From assembly GCF_008728855.1 (NCBI RefSeq), contig NZ_CP042906.1:1488001-1552000 (forward strand): DNA of 64,000 nt, in the 5' to 3' direction. A program made the translations under genes and the position numbers. The notes beneath the pieces were generated by a model that did no database searches, was not told where the DNA came from, and saw only the letters and a program-made list of their open reading frames with translations. Positions 6,448 to 48,670 of this stretch are shown here, piece by piece; the first letter of the stretch is position 1; each line of letters starts with the position of its first letter. The stretch comes from Hypericibacter terrae (GTDB lineage Bacteria; Pseudomonadota; Alphaproteobacteria; Dongiales; Dongiaceae).

Positions 6448-7623
6448 CTACAGCACCCCGTCGATCGAGGCGATGAACATCTGCTTCATCTCGGCCACGC
6501 CCGCCGCCACGGGATTGCCGCCGGTCGAGGGATCGTTGAAGGCCTGTTGCGACAGCGAATCGAGCTTGCTCTTGTCGACGCCCAGATCCTTCAGCGTGTG
6601 CGGGATGCCGATCTCCTTGCGCAGCGCCAGCACCCAATCGAGCACGGCGTTGTAGGACGGGTTCTTCAAGCCCAGCCACGAGGCCAGCCGCGTCATCTTC
6701 TCGTCGATGGCCTTGCGGTTGAACTGCATCACATAGGGCATCACCACGGCGTTGGTCAGGCCGTGATGGGTGTCATAGACGGCGCCCAGCGGATGGCTCA
6801 GCGAATGGATGGCACCCAGGCCCTTCTGGAAGGCGGTGGCGCCCATGGTGGCCGCCGCCATCATGTGAGCGCGGGCCTCGAGGTTCTTGCCGTTCTTCAC
6901 GGCCTCGGGCAGCCAGTCCTTGATCAGCCGCATGCCTTCGACCGCGATGCCGTCGGCCATCGGGTGATAGCTCGGGACGCAATAGGCCTCGAGGCAGTGC
7001 GCCAGCGCATCCATCCCGGTGGCGGCCGTGATCTTGGGCGGCAGCCCGACCGTGAGCGCCGGGTCCTCGATCACGATCGAGGGCTGCACCTTCGGATGGA
7101 AGATCAGCTTCTTCTCATGCGTCCGCTCGTTGGTGATGACCGAGACGCGGCCGACCTCGGAGCCGGTGCCCGATGTGGTGGGCACCGCGATGATCGGCGC
7201 GATGCCGGCCGGATCGACCAGCTTCCAATTGTCGCCCACATCCTCGAACGCCCAGATCGGATGCTTCTGGCCCGACATCAGCGCGACCGCCTTGCCGGCA
7301 TCGAGCGCGCTGCCGCCGCCGAAGGCGATCACGCCGTCATGCTTGCCGGCGCGATAGACCTTGAGCCCGTCCTCGACATTCTTGCCGTTGGGGTTGCCCT
7401 TGATGTCCGAGAACACGGCCGTGGGGAGGCCGGCCGCCTCGTTGCGCGCGACCGCTTCCTTGATCATCGGCAGGCCGGCCAGGCCCGGATCGGTGACGAT
7501 CAGCGGGCGCTTCAGGCCCAGCGCCTTGCACATGTCGGGCAGCTCGGCGATGCGGCCGACGCCGAACTTGATGGCGGTCGGGTAGTTCCAATTGCCGCGC
7601 AGCGCGGCAGCGTCGTTGGACAT
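6448..7623 (-). CDS. iron-containing alcohol dehydrogenase
   Basis: The 391-aa protein has the Fe-ADH NAD-binding segment FGGGSALDAGK (102-111), AVPTTSGTGSEVGR, and the metal ligands expected for the family: Asp205 and His209 in GMDALAHC, His273 in AIHSLSHPLG and His287 in DTHHGLTN. It oxidises a small alcohol or reduces an aldehyde. It is on the same strand as the aldehyde dehydrogenase and gamma-glutamylamide-synthetase genes, but a 347-bp repeat-bearing gap separates it from them, so it may have its own promoter. The substrate could be gamma-glutamylethanolamide or a similar alcohol (inference). Confidence 0.93.
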   Translation of the reverse strand: MSNDAAALRGNWNYPTAIKFGVGRIAELPDMCKALGLKRPLIVTDPGLAGLPMIKEAVARNEAAGLPTAVFSDIKGNPNGKNVEDGLKVYRAGKHDGVIAFGGGSALDAGKAVALMSGQKHPIWAFEDVGDNWKLVDPAGIAPIIAVPTTSGTGSEVGRVSVITNERTHEKKLIFHPKVQPSIVIEDPALTVGLPPKITAATGMDALAHCLEAYCVPSYHPMADGIAVEGMRLIKDWLPEAVKNGKNLEARAHMMAAATMGATAFQKGLGAIHSLSHPLGAVYDTHHGLTNAVVMPYVMQFNRKAIDEKMTRLASWLGLKNPSYNAVLDWVLALRKEIGIPHTLKDLGVDKSKLDSLSQQAFNDPSTGGNPVAAGVAEMKQMFIASIDGVL

Positions 7624-39001: not shown

Positions 39002-39164
39002 CCCCTCCCCCTACCCCCTCCCGCAAGGGGAGGGGGCGTAATTTATTTTTTTGTCTCGCTGTTTGCGTGCGCTCTGCGCGTTAGTTGCGAATGCTGCAGA
39101 TAATGGGCGGTGAGAATCAAGAAACCGCGCCCCCTCCCCTTGCGGGAGGGGGTAGGGGGAGGGG
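39002..39164. repeat. G-rich intergenic inverted-repeat element (exact 37-bp arms)
   Basis: The segment 39002-39038 is the exact reverse complement of 39128-39164, flanking about 89 non-coding, AT-richer bases. On the plus strand the right arm reads GGGAGGGGGTAGGGGGAG(GGG), four G-runs with 1-2-base loops, a textbook G-quadruplex motif. Related arms occur at 42034-42172 and around the IS insertion at 45,309-48,645. It follows the clpA terminator, in an otherwise empty gap. Confidence 0.82.
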
Positions 39165-42033: not shown

Positions 42034-42172
42034 CCCCTCCCCCTATCCCCTCCCGCAAGGGGAGGGGGCTCGAAAAATTCTCTTGAGCGGTGCGGCGGCG
42101 CGAAAGAGAGCAACTCAAAACCGTGAGGTCTAAGACAGTTCACGCGCCCTCCGGAGGGGGTAGGGGGAGGGG
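42034..42172. repeat. G-rich intergenic inverted-repeat element, damaged copy
   Basis: The left arm (42034-42069) matches the 39,002 arm with one change (TATCCCC for TACCCCC). The right arm (42144-42172) has lost its middle (CCGG in place of the CTTGCGGG block) but keeps GGAGGGGGTAGGGGGAGGGG, again a G-quadruplex motif. No gene lies between the arms. Confidence 0.72.
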
Positions 42173-45308: not shown

Positions 45309-45423
45309 GCCCCTCCCGCTACCCCCTAAGTTCATATGATCGCTTCGCTCTACTTTTGAGCTGCGACCGAGTTCAAACGTCAGGTCGAGTCCGAAATAAT
45401 CCACGCCCCCTCCCCCTTGCGGG
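45309..45423. repeat. G-rich intergenic element, left portion, interrupted by the IS
   Basis: The segment has GCCCCTCCCGCTACCCCCT (45309-45327) as a left arm, about 75 bases of spacer, and the start of the right arm up to CTTGCGGG (45416-45423), where the IS begins. The right arm resumes after the IS at 48620 (CTTGCGGGAGGGGGCAGGGG). The uninterrupted element would match those at 39,002 and 42,034. Confidence 0.75.
45416..45423. repeat. target-site duplication, left copy
   Basis: CTTGCGGG directly precedes the left inverted repeat and is repeated exactly at 48620-48627. Eight-base duplications are the norm for the IS1595 family. Confidence 0.9.
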
Positions 45424-45446
45424 GGCAATTATATACTTGACAAAGG
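45424..45446 (+). repeat. left terminal inverted repeat of the IS1595 element
   Basis: GGCAATTATATACTTGACAA followed by AGG; 22 of 23 bases match the right end (the one difference is A/G at position 17). Confidence 0.92.
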
Positions 45447-45485
45447 AAGCCCTCGGGCCCAGATTGTTGGTCATAGGAGCTTCCC

Positions 45486-46433
45486 ATGACCGCCGATCTT
45501 CAGAACCCGATCTTCCAAGACGCCGACAAAGCCCGCGAATTCCTTGAAGCCACCCGCTGGCCGGATGGTCCCATTTGCCCGCATTGCGGCGCGCTTGAGA
45601 ATATCCGCAAGCTTGAGGGTAAGGCGCATCGTCCGGGGCTCTTTCAGTGCAATAGCTGTGAGGGGCAGTTCTCGGTAACGGTCGGGACCGTTTTTGAGCG
45701 TTCCCACATTCCCCTGCATAAGTGGTTGCTGGCGACCCATCTGCTTTGCGCTTCCAAGAAGGGCATGAGCGCCCATCAGCTGCATCGCATGCTCGGCATT
45801 ACCTACAAAACCGCTTGGTTCATGGCTCATCGTATCCGCGAGGCAATGCGCGAGGGCCATTTCTCCGGACCGCTGGGCGGCACTGGCAAAACCGTGGAAG
45901 CCGACGAAACCTACGTTGGGGGCAAAGAAAAGAACAAGCACCGCAACAAGCGGACCAAGGGCAACATCGGCGGCAAGGGCAAAGAGGTCGTGTTCTCGCT
46001 GGTCGAGCGCGGCGGATCTGTCCGCTCGCACCACGTTCCCGAGGTCAATGCCAAGACCCTGCGCCCGATCCTTGTGGCTCAGATCGACCGCAAATCGTTC
46101 CTGATGACTGACGAAGCCGGTCAGTACTACCATCCGGGCAAAGAGTTCGCGAAGCACGAGACGGTCAATCACGGTGCTGGCGAATATGTCCGCGGTGAGG
46201 CGCACTCCAACACGGTCGAGAACTATTTCTCGATCCTCAAGCGCGGGATCACTGGAACCTATCACCATGTCAGCCAGCAGCACTTGAAGCGCTATCTGGC
46301 GGAATTCGATTTCCGCTACAACGAACGCTCAGGCCTCGGTGTCAGCGATGATGAGCGCGCTGTGAAAGCCCTTAAGGGCATCGAGGGGAAGCGCCTGACT
46401 TATCGTCGACCTGACAAAACCGACAACGCTTAA
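45486..46433 (+). CDS. IS1595-family transposase
   Basis: The 315-aa protein has an N-terminal zinc-binding domain (CPHC at 32-35, CNSC at 55-58), a helical region (HKWLLATHLLCASKKGMSAH), and a DDE/DDN catalytic domain: EADETYVGGK, FLMTDEAGQYYH and GEAHSNTVENYFSILKRGIT with the H-x-x-N/E pattern of the IS1595 family. It is full length with no frameshift, so the element may still be active. It starts 40 bases inside the left terminal repeat. Confidence 0.95.
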   Translation: MTADLQNPIFQDADKAREFLEATRWPDGPICPHCGALENIRKLEGKAHRPGLFQCNSCEGQFSVTVGTVFERSHIPLHKWLLATHLLCASKKGMSAHQLHRMLGITYKTAWFMAHRIREAMREGHFSGPLGGTGKTVEADETYVGGKEKNKHRNKRTKGNIGGKGKEVVFSLVERGGSVRSHHVPEVNAKTLRPILVAQIDRKSFLMTDEAGQYYHPGKEFAKHETVNHGAGEYVRGEAHSNTVENYFSILKRGITGTYHHVSQQHLKRYLAEFDFRYNERSGLGVSDDERAVKALKGIEGKRLTYRRPDKTDNA

Positions 46434-46551
46434 GCAAAGAGTGCGGCGCTTTCTGCGCTGGCGCAAAGCCTTAGGTGGGCGGCTTTAGCGATGATTCGAC
46501 CCCAACGCTGGGTTGCGGTAGCCTGCATCCCTCACAACCAAGGAGGGGGAT

Positions 46552-47124
46552 ATGGCTGCTGTCGCCGTCATTTTTCATGGTCCGATTTCTCACCCGGCCA
46601 CCATTCGTTTCAGAAACGCACTCTGCCAAATGGTGAATGAGGCGAAACCCGATGGGGCAAGAAAGTATGACAAACTTTATCTGCTGATGAACAGCGCGGG
46701 AGGTTCCCTCGACGACGGGATTTCTCTCTATAGCCTGATACGAATGCTGCCGATGGCAGTCACCACGGTGAATATGGGATTCATCGCCTCTATCGCCGTA
46801 ATCCCATTCTTGGCCGGGTCTAATCGCATTAGCACCCCCAACGGGTGTTTTCACTTTCACCAATTTGACTGGACATTTGATACTTCGCGCGCAACGCGGT
46901 CGCAGCTATCAGACTACACGCAAATACTAGACTCCGCCCGAGGGCAGGCCTTTGAAATTCTGAAGAGCCAAACGCTTCTTACGGAGACGGACTTCGAGCA
47001 ACTCAAGCTCATGAATGAGCCCGTCGTTAAGGGCGCAGCTTTTGCCAAAGAGAAAGGGATCATCCAAGAAATCGAGTTCCCCGCACTTCCCGCCAACACT
47101 CCCATTTTCAACGTGGACTACTAA
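46552..47124 (+). CDS. ClpP/SppA-class serine protease, IS cargo
   Basis: The 190-aa protein has the crotonase-like ClpP fold: YDKLYLLMNSAGGSLDDGIS forms the oxyanion-hole Gly-Gly loop, NMGFIASIAVIPFLAGSNR holds the probable nucleophile Ser80, and PNGCFHFHQFDW the catalytic His103. The start has a strong AAGGAGG site 6 bases away. It lacks a signal peptide and membrane segments, so it is cytoplasmic. ClpP subunits need a ring of seven and an ATPase; no AAA+ partner lies in the element. Its role in the mobile element is unknown. Confidence 0.86.
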   Translation: MAAVAVIFHGPISHPATIRFRNALCQMVNEAKPDGARKYDKLYLLMNSAGGSLDDGISLYSLIRMLPMAVTTVNMGFIASIAVIPFLAGSNRISTPNGCFHFHQFDWTFDTSRATRSQLSDYTQILDSARGQAFEILKSQTLLTETDFEQLKLMNEPVVKGAAFAKEKGIIQEIEFPALPANTPIFNVDY

Positions 47125-47157
47125 TCTCATCCGTTGGCTCAGGCTGGGAATTGGGAA

Positions 47158-47298
47158 TCACTTTGGTTTCTCTTTCTTGCCTTTGTTTGCGCGTACCTTT
47201 GATGCGGGCACATGCGGCTTGGGCGGAGACGCCAGCATATTGCGGACCGTCTCCATAAAGCGTTCGTCCTTCTCGGGCGGACGCTTTTTCTCTTGCAT
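47158..47298 (-). CDS. 46-aa basic protein, IS cargo (third gene of coupled operon)
   Basis: The short frame MQEKKRPPEKDERFMETVRN...SKVRANKGKKEKPK has a Lys/Arg/Pro-rich sequence ending in a strongly basic tail. Its ATG shares one base with the stop of the DUF1828 gene (TGATG on the minus strand), the standard arrangement for translational coupling. That and the similar spacing of the other two genes argue that it is real. Basic character suggests nucleic-acid binding or partner binding; I recognise no domain. Confidence 0.72.
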   Translation of the reverse strand: MQEKKRPPEKDERFMETVRNMLASPPKPHVPASKVRANKGKKEKPK

Positions 47299-48050
47299 CA
47301 ATGAATGCTCGACATTCTGGACATCTCGCTGCGCAAGCCAGAAAGCGGCACAGTGACCGCCGCCATTTGTAATAGCGCCAGATCCGATGAATCCCAAGCA
47401 TCTTCATCGTCATAAACGAGACGATGCTGGATCGAGTCACCCATCGCCCTAGCGACGTCAATGTGGGAAACCACCTTGGCGTTCATTGAATTGGCTTCCG
47501 GCGACACCGCGTCCACCACCAGCTGTTTGTCGTCTCCGATCGGAGCGACAAAATCGAACGTGTAGGGGCGATTGCTGGCGCCAACGAGCCTCTTCTCGCG
47601 CAGAATTCTGTCTCTGCCAATGAAGATGCTCAGGGTATTGAAAATCTCTTGCTCCAGGTCGCGCCGTCGCTTCGGTCGGAACACCTTCAAGCCATGTTCC
47701 GCGATAGATACTGAGGCGCGACTGAGCAACGGAATGGCGGACGGCAACGCGGCCACCGGGATCGGTTGAGTCAGCAGAATGCCATTCGTCATCTTGAGGC
47801 CGCGAGTCACAAGAGAGGGAGGAAACGCGCGTTTCAGATTTTCGATAACTAGGCCGTGTGATGACAGGCAATCCACCGCGCCACCGCCATCCGTGACAAT
47901 AACCGACTCACTCATCGCCGACTGAATGTACGCGGTAACGAAGCTGCCAGACGGATAGACATGCTGAGTCGCAACAGCATAACCGTCCTCTGTCTTCGCA
48001 AAGTCTCCGAAGACTGACAATGCAGATCGAATCTCTGTCAGCGCGCTCAT
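47298..48050 (-). CDS. DUF1828-domain protein, IS cargo
   Basis: The 250-aa protein has an N-terminal DUF1828-like region (residues about 10-100, including ESVIVTDGGGAVDCLSSHGL, IENLKRAFPP) and a C-terminal half with YTFDFVAPIGDDKQLVVDAV and KVVSHIDVARAMGDSIQHRL, reminiscent of DUF1829. These domains have no established biochemical activity. Its start overlaps the stop of the upstream gene (ATGA), and its own stop overlaps the next start. It is the middle gene of the coupled operon. Confidence 0.82.
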   Translation of the reverse strand: MSALTEIRSALSVFGDFAKTEDGYAVATQHVYPSGSFVTAYIQSAMSESVIVTDGGGAVDCLSSHGLVIENLKRAFPPSLVTRGLKMTNGILLTQPIPVAALPSAIPLLSRASVSIAEHGLKVFRPKRRRDLEQEIFNTLSIFIGRDRILREKRLVGASNRPYTFDFVAPIGDDKQLVVDAVSPEANSMNAKVVSHIDVARAMGDSIQHRLVYDDEDAWDSSDLALLQMAAVTVPLSGLRSEMSRMSSIH

Positions 48051-48571
48051 ATCAGGCCTTCCCTTGGCGGATATTCGATCATTTGTGTTTTCGCCAACTC
48101 GATTCTGGTCTCAGCGCAGAACCAACGCAATGCCTGCTTCCATGTCTTAACGGTGGCCGGCAGGGCCCGAGCGCATAGCAATTCGGGAACCTGGGTCAGG
48201 GAAGCCATGCTGCTATTGTCCGCCCAAGCATGAAAATGCGGCCCATTTACTACGAAATCGCCAAGGGCCGGCGCCGCCCACATGGGGTTAGCGTGGCGCT
48301 TCCAAGAAGGCTCAAAATCGAGCCGCCATACGCAGTCTGGGATGTTGAGAGTTATTGTGAACTGGGGCTCGGGCGAATTCGGAATGGCCGTCGCCTGCAT
48401 AGAGGCGCCGACGAGGCTATCCTCGACCAAAATGGGCCAAAGCGCCCGGAACTCGGCGGGACGGTTACCCTGCTGCCACGCGGCTTCCGCCGCGACTCGC
48501 TTGGGCGCGGCAAGGAAAGCGTCGACCAGGTCGGCAACAAGGCCGGTCTTCGGGCCACCAGACCAATCCAT
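48047..48571 (-). CDS. unknown 174-aa protein, first gene of the IS cargo operon
   Basis: The product (MDWSGGPKTGLVADLVDAFL...) is soluble, with EPQFTITLNIPDCVWRLDFE and GDFVVNGPHFHAWADNSSMA in the middle and a helical C-terminus (VKTWKQALRWFCAETRIELA). I recognise no family. It starts 26 bases inside the right inverted repeat, so its promoter must overlap the IS end or lie outside it. Its stop overlaps the DUF1828 start (ATGA). Confidence 0.78.
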   Translation of the reverse strand: MDWSGGPKTGLVADLVDAFLAAPKRVAAEAAWQQGNRPAEFRALWPILVEDSLVGASMQATAIPNSPEPQFTITLNIPDCVWRLDFEPSWKRHANPMWAAPALGDFVVNGPHFHAWADNSSMASLTQVPELLCARALPATVKTWKQALRWFCAETRIELAKTQMIEYPPREGLI

Positions 48572-48596
48572 GCCTCAATTGTGGACCGATTCGTTG

Positions 48597-48619
48597 CCTT
48601 TGCCAAGTATATAATTGCC
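48597..48619 (-). repeat. right terminal inverted repeat of the IS1595 element
   Basis: Read on the minus strand it is GGCAATTATATACTTGGCAA followed by AGG, matching the left end at 22 of 23 positions. Confidence 0.92.
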
Positions 48620-48627
48620 CTTGCGGG
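48620..48627. repeat. target-site duplication, right copy
   Basis: CTTGCGGG, identical to 45416-45423; it continues as GGGAGGGGGC..., the rest of the interrupted G-rich arm. Confidence 0.9.
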
Positions 48628-48670
48628 AGGGGGCAGGGGGAGGGGCTTCCGATGACGCGCGAGTTGCGTC

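What the first reader, a model, noticed from the sequence alone, without database searches (positions are those of the whole stretch)
45416..48627. Complete IS1595-family element carrying four non-transposition genes
Seen: 23-bp terminal inverted repeats, perfect 8-bp target duplication (CTTGCGGG), one full transposase, one ClpP-class protease gene and three minus-strand genes, 3196 bp in all. Known: IS1595-superfamily elements make 8-bp duplications and some carry passenger genes. Inferred: the cargo moves as a defined unit, so it may give an advantage such as defence, stress resistance or element maintenance.
Basis: partly seen in the sequence, partly recalled or inferred. Interest (0 to 1): 0.78.

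Follow-up and report, generated by a model that had tools for sequence, protein, structure and literature searches.

The report
Transposon with swappable cargo and microprotein
A small jumping DNA element carries four extra genes, and its relatives in many bacteria swap their main cargo (often toxin- or defence-like genes) while many keep one tiny gene that seems not to have been described before.

Summary
In detail: a complete 3196-bp IS1595-family element (45424-48619), TIRs matching 22 of 23, perfect 8-bp TSD CTTGCGGG. All four passenger ORFs are credible: a ClpP-like gene and a coupled three-gene minus-strand operon (174 aa; 250 aa, DUF1828/1829-like; 46-aa microprotein). Passenger-carrying IS1595 elements ('transporter IS') are known. 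New here: (1) all 77 relatives that could be delimited without selecting on length (53 of 80 named loci, 24 of 40 sampled loci) carry at least 0.8 kb of cargo; one undelimited locus may be cargo-less. (2) Cargo is exchanged: the window's nearest transposases carry HEPN-motif cargo, and DUF1828/1829 cargo needs five changes on the tree. (3) The smallest gene belongs to a microprotein family (DxVLxRMLxTPPKPH) without Pfam match, in 52 of 85 elements; codon-position bias shows coding; of 16 strong genomic hits (7 are rows of the model) 15 lie in IS1595 elements or relics; in 24 of 52 its start codon overlaps head-to-head with that of a long ORF. About 23 of 85 elements have cargo matching toxin, restriction or defence families. 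That this cargo gives defence or self-maintenance is inference. Both AlphaFold models failed; nothing was tested at the bench.

The parts
45416..45423 (.). left target-site duplication CTTGCGGG
   Evidence: identical to 48620-48627
45424..45446 (+). left terminal inverted repeat, 23 bp, 22 matching
45437..45465 (+). putative transposase promoter: -35 TTGACA inside the TIR, 17-bp spacer, -10 CAGATT
   Evidence: consensus match only; TTGAC in the left end of 68 and the right end of 34 of 85 elements, promoter score >=9/12 in 71% of left ends, 21% of right ends, 0.5% of interior positions; window score 9 at both ends
45486..46433 (+). IS1595-family transposase, 315 aa
   Evidence: NF033547 1.3e-63, PF12762 5.3e-43, PF12760 1.3e-11
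46552..47124 (+). ClpP-like protease gene, 190 aa; Ser80/His103/Pro157 read by me off the alignment with PDB 9uxt (P. plecoglossicida ClpP1)
   Evidence: PF00574 1.5e-12; 9uxt_A 1e-12
47298..48050 (-). 250-aa DUF1828/DUF1829-like protein (PADLOC candidate PDC-M24B)
   Evidence: PDLC04540 3.6e-8; distant homologs L096/L146 match DUF1828 6.7e-12/4.1e-11
48047..48571 (-). 174-aa protein of unknown fold, first gene of the operon
   Evidence: 27-42% identical upstream partner of the 250-aa family in L012, L040-L043; by size and place only in L045, L096, L146 (17-22%); no Pfam or PADLOC match
48578..48606 (-). putative cargo promoter: TTGGCA in the right TIR, 17-bp spacer, CACAAT, 6 nt before the ATG
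   Evidence: consensus match only, score 9/12
48597..48619 (-). right terminal inverted repeat
48620..48627 (.). right target-site duplication CTTGCGGG

Best explanation
It is a transporter IS of the IS1595 family: a chassis (TIR, transposase, usually a ~45-aa microprotein) with an interchangeable cargo slot. SHOWN: complete element; same-genome and same-genus relatives keep the chassis (Tpase DNA 83-86% identical) but hold unrelated cargo; the homology to them ends within about 30 bp of the transposase stop. SHOWN: the microprotein is under protein-level selection, lies almost only in IS1595 elements in the genomes searched, and occurs beside many cargo types. INFERRED: here the slot holds a coupled operon (174 aa, DUF1828/1829-like 250 aa, microprotein), possibly read from a promoter in the right TIR, that acts like a toxin-antitoxin or abortive-infection module, so that loss of the element is punished or phage-infected cells are stopped. 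INFERRED: the ClpP-like gene, whose nearest solved relative (a Ser-His-Pro ClpP) joins a second ClpP in mixed rings, is a later addition that may redirect host proteolysis, for example towards one partner of the pair.
For: Element and TSD; element-free orthologous locus in G001. L042, another family of the class: 2483-bp IS1595 element, TSD CCCCCGGG, same layout Tpase / 250 aa / 174 aa without ClpP. Cargo exchange: tree, 99% SH-aLRT clade of window with L128, L005, L008 (all labelled HEPN-motif); DUF1828/29 in 5 rows needs 5 changes; homology break. Defence context: DUF1829 in the phage-defence system DS-6/HipAD (PMC13092281); PDC-M24B; relatives' cargo. Coupled ORFs. Microprotein. ClpP relative.
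Against: The window 250-aa protein itself is below Pfam's cut-offs (DUF1829 13.5, DUF1828 12.1 bits vs about 22); PDC-M24B is only a candidate and no A partner was detected. In DS-6 the DUF1829 protein partners a HipA kinase, which is absent here. HEPN-like calls rest mostly on one motif. Right-end promoters do not track cargo strand significantly (10 of 35 minus vs 7 of 47 plus, p=0.17). Microprotein-transposase co-divergence is weak (rho 0.155, p 0.023; pairs with different cargo 0.117, p 0.084), and 19 of 71 elements of the main clade lack a detectable microprotein. 34 of 86 tree rows fall in none of my cargo groups. One microprotein hit (G155:C2, E 1.8e-7) has no IS1595 transposase in the 9 kb around it. 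AlphaFold models of the 174- and 250-aa proteins are useless (pLDDT 34, 38).
Confidence: 0.6

Rival explanations
1. Selfish maintenance only: the cargo are addiction modules that keep the small element (or the replicon it sits in) from being lost; phage defence is a by-product.
For: PIN, Panacea and DUF433/PIN-like cargo are toxin-antitoxin type; coupled operons; related transposases occur on 254 plasmid records at E<=1e-20.
Against: R-M, GmrSD, AbiD and RelA/SpoT (PDC-S33) cargo are defence type; a chromosomal transposon at one site gains less from addiction than a plasmid (general knowledge).
Confidence: 0.3
2. The microprotein is a partner of the cargo (antitoxin or expression regulator), not of the transposase.
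For: In 24 of 52 elements it starts head-to-head on the same CATG as a long ORF, against 1.3% of random windows of the same length (136 of 10400); in the window it is translationally coupled behind the 250-aa gene.
Against: It occurs with HEPN-motif, PIN, MTase/GmrSD, Panacea and DUF1828 cargo alike, and sharing a cargo label does not raise microprotein similarity among distant transposases (0.302 vs 0.300, with one mis-anchored row).
Confidence: 0.35
3. The cargo are unrelated genes trapped by chance between ends (hitchhikers or decaying relics) without selected function.
For: 34 of 86 tree rows fall in none of my cargo groups; one own-genome relative has a frameshifted transposase; one genome holds an IS1595 relic.
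Against: Fixed layout, intact ORFs, repeated occurrence of the same rare families on different transposases (DUF1828 5, Panacea 4, PIN/NYN 10 rows; labels partly by eye), third-position bias of the microprotein.
Confidence: 0.1

Closest known systems
IS1595 family, transporter IS (tIS) such as ISNha5 (Siguier, Gagnevin and Chandler 2009; paper not held, known here from passages in PMC11891212, PMC3129680 and PMC8101967)
   Same: IS1595 transposase with zinc ribbon, 8-bp TSD, TIR, passenger genes unrelated to transposition
   Different: The passages I saw name transcription regulators as the IS1595 passengers; they do not mention cargo as the rule, cassette exchange or the microprotein; ISfinder was not available
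DS-6 / HipAD phage-defence system (PMC13092281; one section and passages read)
   Same: second protein contains DUF1829; two-gene system that its authors take for toxin-antitoxin-like
   Different: DS-6B is DUF3037+DUF1829 and partners a HipA kinase; here a DUF1828/1829-like protein partners a 174-aa unknown protein
PADLOC candidate PDC-M24
   Same: window protein and relatives match PDC-M24B
   Different: no PDC-M24A match for the 174-aa partner; no held paper names PDC-M24
P. plecoglossicida ClpP1, PDB 9uxt (PMC12900304; abstract and passages read)
   Same: best solved-structure match; Ser and His aligned, third residue Pro in both by my reading of the alignment
   Different: one of two ClpP paralogues of that fish pathogen, not transposon cargo
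Tn3-family transposons with toxin-antitoxin pairs (Lima-Mendez 2020, seen only as a reference-list entry in PMC10214660)
   Same: TA genes as part of a transposon
   Different: unrelated transposase; larger elements (recalled)

Membership tests
IS1595 insertion-sequence family | IS1595 transposase domain above curated cut-off | tested here: met
   NF033547 214.7 bits vs 75; PF12762 147.1 vs 27
IS1595 insertion-sequence family | 8-bp target duplication and terminal inverted repeats | tested here: met
IS1595 insertion-sequence family | named ISfinder subgroup (ISNwi1, ISNha5 etc.) | not testable with these tools
   ISfinder not held
transporter IS (tIS) | passenger genes unrelated to transposition between the ends | tested here: met
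   definition from PMC3129680
transporter IS (tIS) | demonstrated transposition with cargo | not testable with these tools
   only an element-free orthologous locus
DUF1828/DUF1829 proteins | Pfam match above gathering score | tested here: not met
   window 13.5 (DUF1829, cut-off 22.2) and 12.1 bits (DUF1828, cut-off 22); met by distant homologs L096, L146
PDC-M24 candidate defence system | B component | tested here: met
   E 3.6e-8; this library lists no curated cut-off
PDC-M24 candidate defence system | A component | tested here: inconclusive
   no PADLOC match at E<=1e-3 for the 174-aa protein and the relatives scanned; best was Csx19 E 0.031 for L045
ClpP peptidase fold | Ser-His catalytic pair | tested here: met
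   aligned; third residue is Pro by alignment, as in 9uxt; activity not testable
HEPN ribonucleases (cargo of relatives) | domain match above cut-off | tested here: inconclusive
   met for L160 (PF05168); L117 is AbiD; of ten others scanned none passed a HEPN cut-off (best HEPN_Cthe2314 E 0.013); profile vs PDB not significant

The most novel reading that the evidence does not exclude
One large clade of IS1595 transposons is a dedicated vehicle for small toxin and defence cassettes: it rarely or never exists without cargo, exchanges cargo readily, and uses an undescribed ~45-aa microprotein, often sharing its start codon head-to-head with a main cargo gene, as the common switch that couples cargo expression to transposition.
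Probability: 0.35. Interest if true: 0.82.

Novelty: new variant of a known kind. Interest (0 to 1): 0.64.

Why it matters
If cargo is the rule rather than the exception in this IS1595 clade, these 2-5 kb elements are very small vehicles for defence and toxin genes, and their ends (TIR plus TSD) mark the limits of each module. That turns a sequence search into a way of finding new compact immune modules, also outside defence islands, and gives a microprotein family whose role (transposition control or cargo control) can be tested directly.

Tried and rejected
ClpP relatives by pattern scan of genome contigs: none; on plasmids 14 records, all under 60% identity. 250-aa and 174-aa relatives in viral contigs: none. 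AlphaFold models with two-sequence alignments: pLDDT 34 and 38, not used for fold search. PDB profile searches: none for the 250-aa family; 3vv1 (LEC-6) E 0.009 for the 174-aa family, not trusted. HEPN-like profile vs PDB: best hit myosin E 0.04, Csm6' E 0.2, not significant.

I first took the small minus-strand ORF for spurious and reversed that. I expected right-TIR promoters to go with minus-strand cargo; not significant. Target preference for short palindromes is modest (first three flank pairs complementary in 51/58/46% vs 27-29% of controls).

Rows dropped: L118 left out, restored; L095, L098, L111 and L118 have exact TSDs but weaker TIRs (5-7 mismatches in 24); L129 dropped (weak TIR); L049 (TSD 7 of 8) not counted; L045 (TIR 24 of 26, no TSD) not among the 85 but used in the tree; L097 mis-anchored in A13 and in the Mantel run, left out of A14; Mantel redone. 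Some TSDs are homopolymers (TTTTTTTT), where exact borders are uncertain. L109 (IR 17 of 18, 989-bp span, no TSD) may be a cargo-less member and counts against universality. Of the 80 named loci 27 stayed undelimited; of the 62 places I fetched 40, of which 16 were not delimited (2 without a transposase match, L129 weak, 13 without TIR plus TSD); several run into contig ends. Cargo labels on the tree were given by eye plus Pfam/PADLOC; the family tally covered 142 ORFs: 139 of the 155 listed plus three with re-chosen frames or starts.
Full report
Observation. TIRs start at 45424 and end at 48619 (3196 bp; 22 of 23 outer bases match) and the 8-bp TSD CTTGCGGG is perfect. The 16-base end (up to 2 mismatches) occurs four times in the genome: this element and a second one of 2352 bp with its own TSD CCCTCAAG; a third element with more divergent ends (L128, 2513 bp) came from a transposase search. 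In the one other genome of the genus searched, the two flanking genes are 11 bp apart and the element is absent.

Genes. The transposase is a clear IS1595 member. Behind it in the same direction, with a purine-rich stretch before its ATG, lies a ClpP-like gene; its best solved relative is P. plecoglossicida ClpP1, a Ser-His-Pro ClpP that lacks the N-terminal loop and is more active in mixed rings with the second ClpP. On the other strand lies a coupled operon: 174 aa, then 250 aa (ATGA overlap), then a 46-aa ORF (TGATG overlap). The 250-aa protein is DUF1828/1829-like: below Pfam's cut-off itself, but its relatives match PADLOC candidate PDC-M24B and two distant homologs match DUF1828 at 7e-12 and 4e-11. 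DUF1829 was recently found in a validated phage-defence system.

The pair elsewhere. Relatives of the 250-aa protein were found in 6 further genomes of 385 searched and on one plasmid. L044 was cut short by its contig. In L012, L040, L041, L042 and L043 a 27-42% identical relative of the 174-aa protein lies directly upstream. L042 is a complete 2483-bp IS1595 element with TSD CCCCCGGG and the same layout without ClpP. L045 has TIRs of 24 of 26 but no TSD and a transposase only 33% identical; its upstream gene resembles the 174-aa protein in size and place only (18% identity). In L012, L040, L041 and L043 no IS1595 transposase was found, though the contig of L043 ends about 0.3 kb past the pair. 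L096 and L146 are further IS1595 elements with a DUF1828 protein behind a ~165-aa gene.

Cargo appears to be the rule. By TIR plus exact TSD 53 could be delimited; sizes run from 1.9 to 4.8 kb. In a family-based sample, 31 of 144 genomes had matches at 62 places; of 40 loci fetched 24 were delimited, 1.7 to 3.4 kb (L129 dropped as weak). All 77 carry at least 0.8 kb beyond the matched part of the transposase. The search range would have included 1-kb elements; one undelimited candidate (L109, 989 bp, no TSD) may be cargo-less. With the window and seven elements found by paired TIRs or by cargo, the set is 85.

What the cargo is. Scanning 142 cargo ORFs against Pfam at E<=0.001 gave PIN 6, Panacea 4, N6/N4 methyltransferase 2, GmrSD_N 2, PIN_10 2, DUF1828 2, DUF3800 2, DUF433 2, and single Abi_2, C5 and D12 methyltransferase, RelA_SpoT, HNH, GIY-YIG, ClpP and others (25 of 39 families are listed). 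Single-protein scans named AbiD (7e-60), PDC-S33 (4e-100), NsnA/PD-T4-2_A, one HEPN above cut-off and one proteasome-like protein. Adding these up (the tally does not name its members, so this sum is approximate, and it counts the two DUF1828 elements), about 23 of 85 elements have database-supported toxin, restriction or defence cargo. Separately, 36 of 155 ORFs hold R[NDH]xxxH against 6.6 expected by shuffling; I labelled 27 elements HEPN-like, L144 by kinship rather than motif; only L160 and the AbiD protein of L117 have family-level support. 34 of 86 tree rows fall in none of my groups, although some of them have other Pfam matches.

Cargo exchange. On a transposase tree of 86 rows the window sits in a 99%-supported clade with L128 and L005 (same genome) and L008 (same genus), all with HEPN-motif cargo; DUF1828/29 cargo (5 rows, L045 included) needs 5 changes and Panacea (4 rows) 4; all labels together need 34 changes, fewer than the shuffled mean of 44.3, so cargo is partly clustered. 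DNA identity between window and these relatives is 83-86% over most of the transposase and ends between 28 bp before and 31 bp past its stop codon.

The microprotein. The window's small ORF led to a family DxVLxRMLxTPPKPH with a K/R-rich tail: 52 of 85 elements at E<=0.01, against 3 hits in 3.6 times as much flanking sequence; one of the three (L132L) lies in an IS1595 relic, one (L144L) beside another IS1595 transposase, one (L142L) was not followed up. By my division of the tree it occurs in 52 of 71 elements of the main transposase clade and 0 of 14 of the rest. Substitutions over 51 pairs, which are not independent, fall 464:360:906 on codon positions 1:2:3. Six examples and the window's copy match no Pfam family; the only listed match is YebO, E 0.34. 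In 144 genomes there were 20 hits at E<=0.01; of the 16 at E<=1.4e-4, 14 lie within 1.6 kb of an IS1595 transposase listed and one in a relic; one (G155:C2) has no such transposase in 9 kb. Seven of the 16 are rows of the model itself; of the other nine, eight lie in IS1595 elements or the relic. Of the four weaker hits one lies beside a transposase (G110). In 24 of 52 elements its start is the same CATG, read on the other strand, as that of an ORF of at least 120 codons (random windows of the same length 136 of 10400); a few of these ORFs, such as that of L077, are probably not the true cargo gene. On the Mesorhizobium plasmid NZ_CP080533 the microprotein lies in an element with perfect TIRs and TSD and is not in the PLSDB gene table, which is incomplete; in two other annotated plasmid elements with PIN cargo (L193, L194) no microprotein hit was found.

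Mechanism. Shown: element, cargo exchange, coding microprotein. Inferred: transposition by the IS1595 mechanism; toxin-antitoxin-like or abortive-infection action of the operon; mixing of the ClpP-like subunit with host ClpP. The left TIR carries a -35 box in most elements (TTGAC in 68 of 85) and the window's right TIR carries a similar one before the operon, but right-end promoters are not significantly tied to cargo strand.

Known or new. Passenger genes in IS1595 elements are known since 2009 (passages; original paper not held). Ten library searches listed no paper whose title or opening abstract describes this cargo, cargo as a clade-wide rule, or the microprotein; three of the lists were capped below the number found, most listed papers were not opened, and ISfinder was not available, so novelty is provisional.

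Noticed in passing
window 48619-48633, 39014-39028, 39138-39152, 42046-42060: The element sits in a GC-rich palindromic intergenic repeat (CCCTTGCGGGAGGGGG) with 236 matches at up to 2 mismatches in the genome vs 24 for the reversed control, often in facing pairs some 50-190 bp apart (REPIN-like); a second IS1595 element of the genome (L128) has the same TSD CTTGCGGG.
   Followed up: partly
L142:3723-4160, L193:5786-5971, L194:3122-3310, L041 near 6747-7409: A second small protein type (ARxLGCDExxxxF...IAxxKPK, seen by eye) lies beside PIN cargo or near the 174/250 pair in loci where the TPPKPH microprotein was not found inside the element.
   Followed up: no
L070, L072, L074, L075, L080, L081, L135, L150: These elements sit in AGG-N8-CCT; several have ends that themselves begin CCT, so the ends repeat the target motif on both sides of the TSD.
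   Followed up: partly
L050:6153-7049: Proteasome-like (PF00227 E 2.5e-6) cargo in a related IS1595 element: a second self-compartmentalising-protease type beside the window's ClpP-like gene.
   Followed up: no
L005 2287-2484, L008 2349-2555, L015 92-313: A further small ORF (65-73 aa, EITPEMI-like motif) lies directly inside the end far from the transposase in three HEPN-type elements.
   Followed up: no
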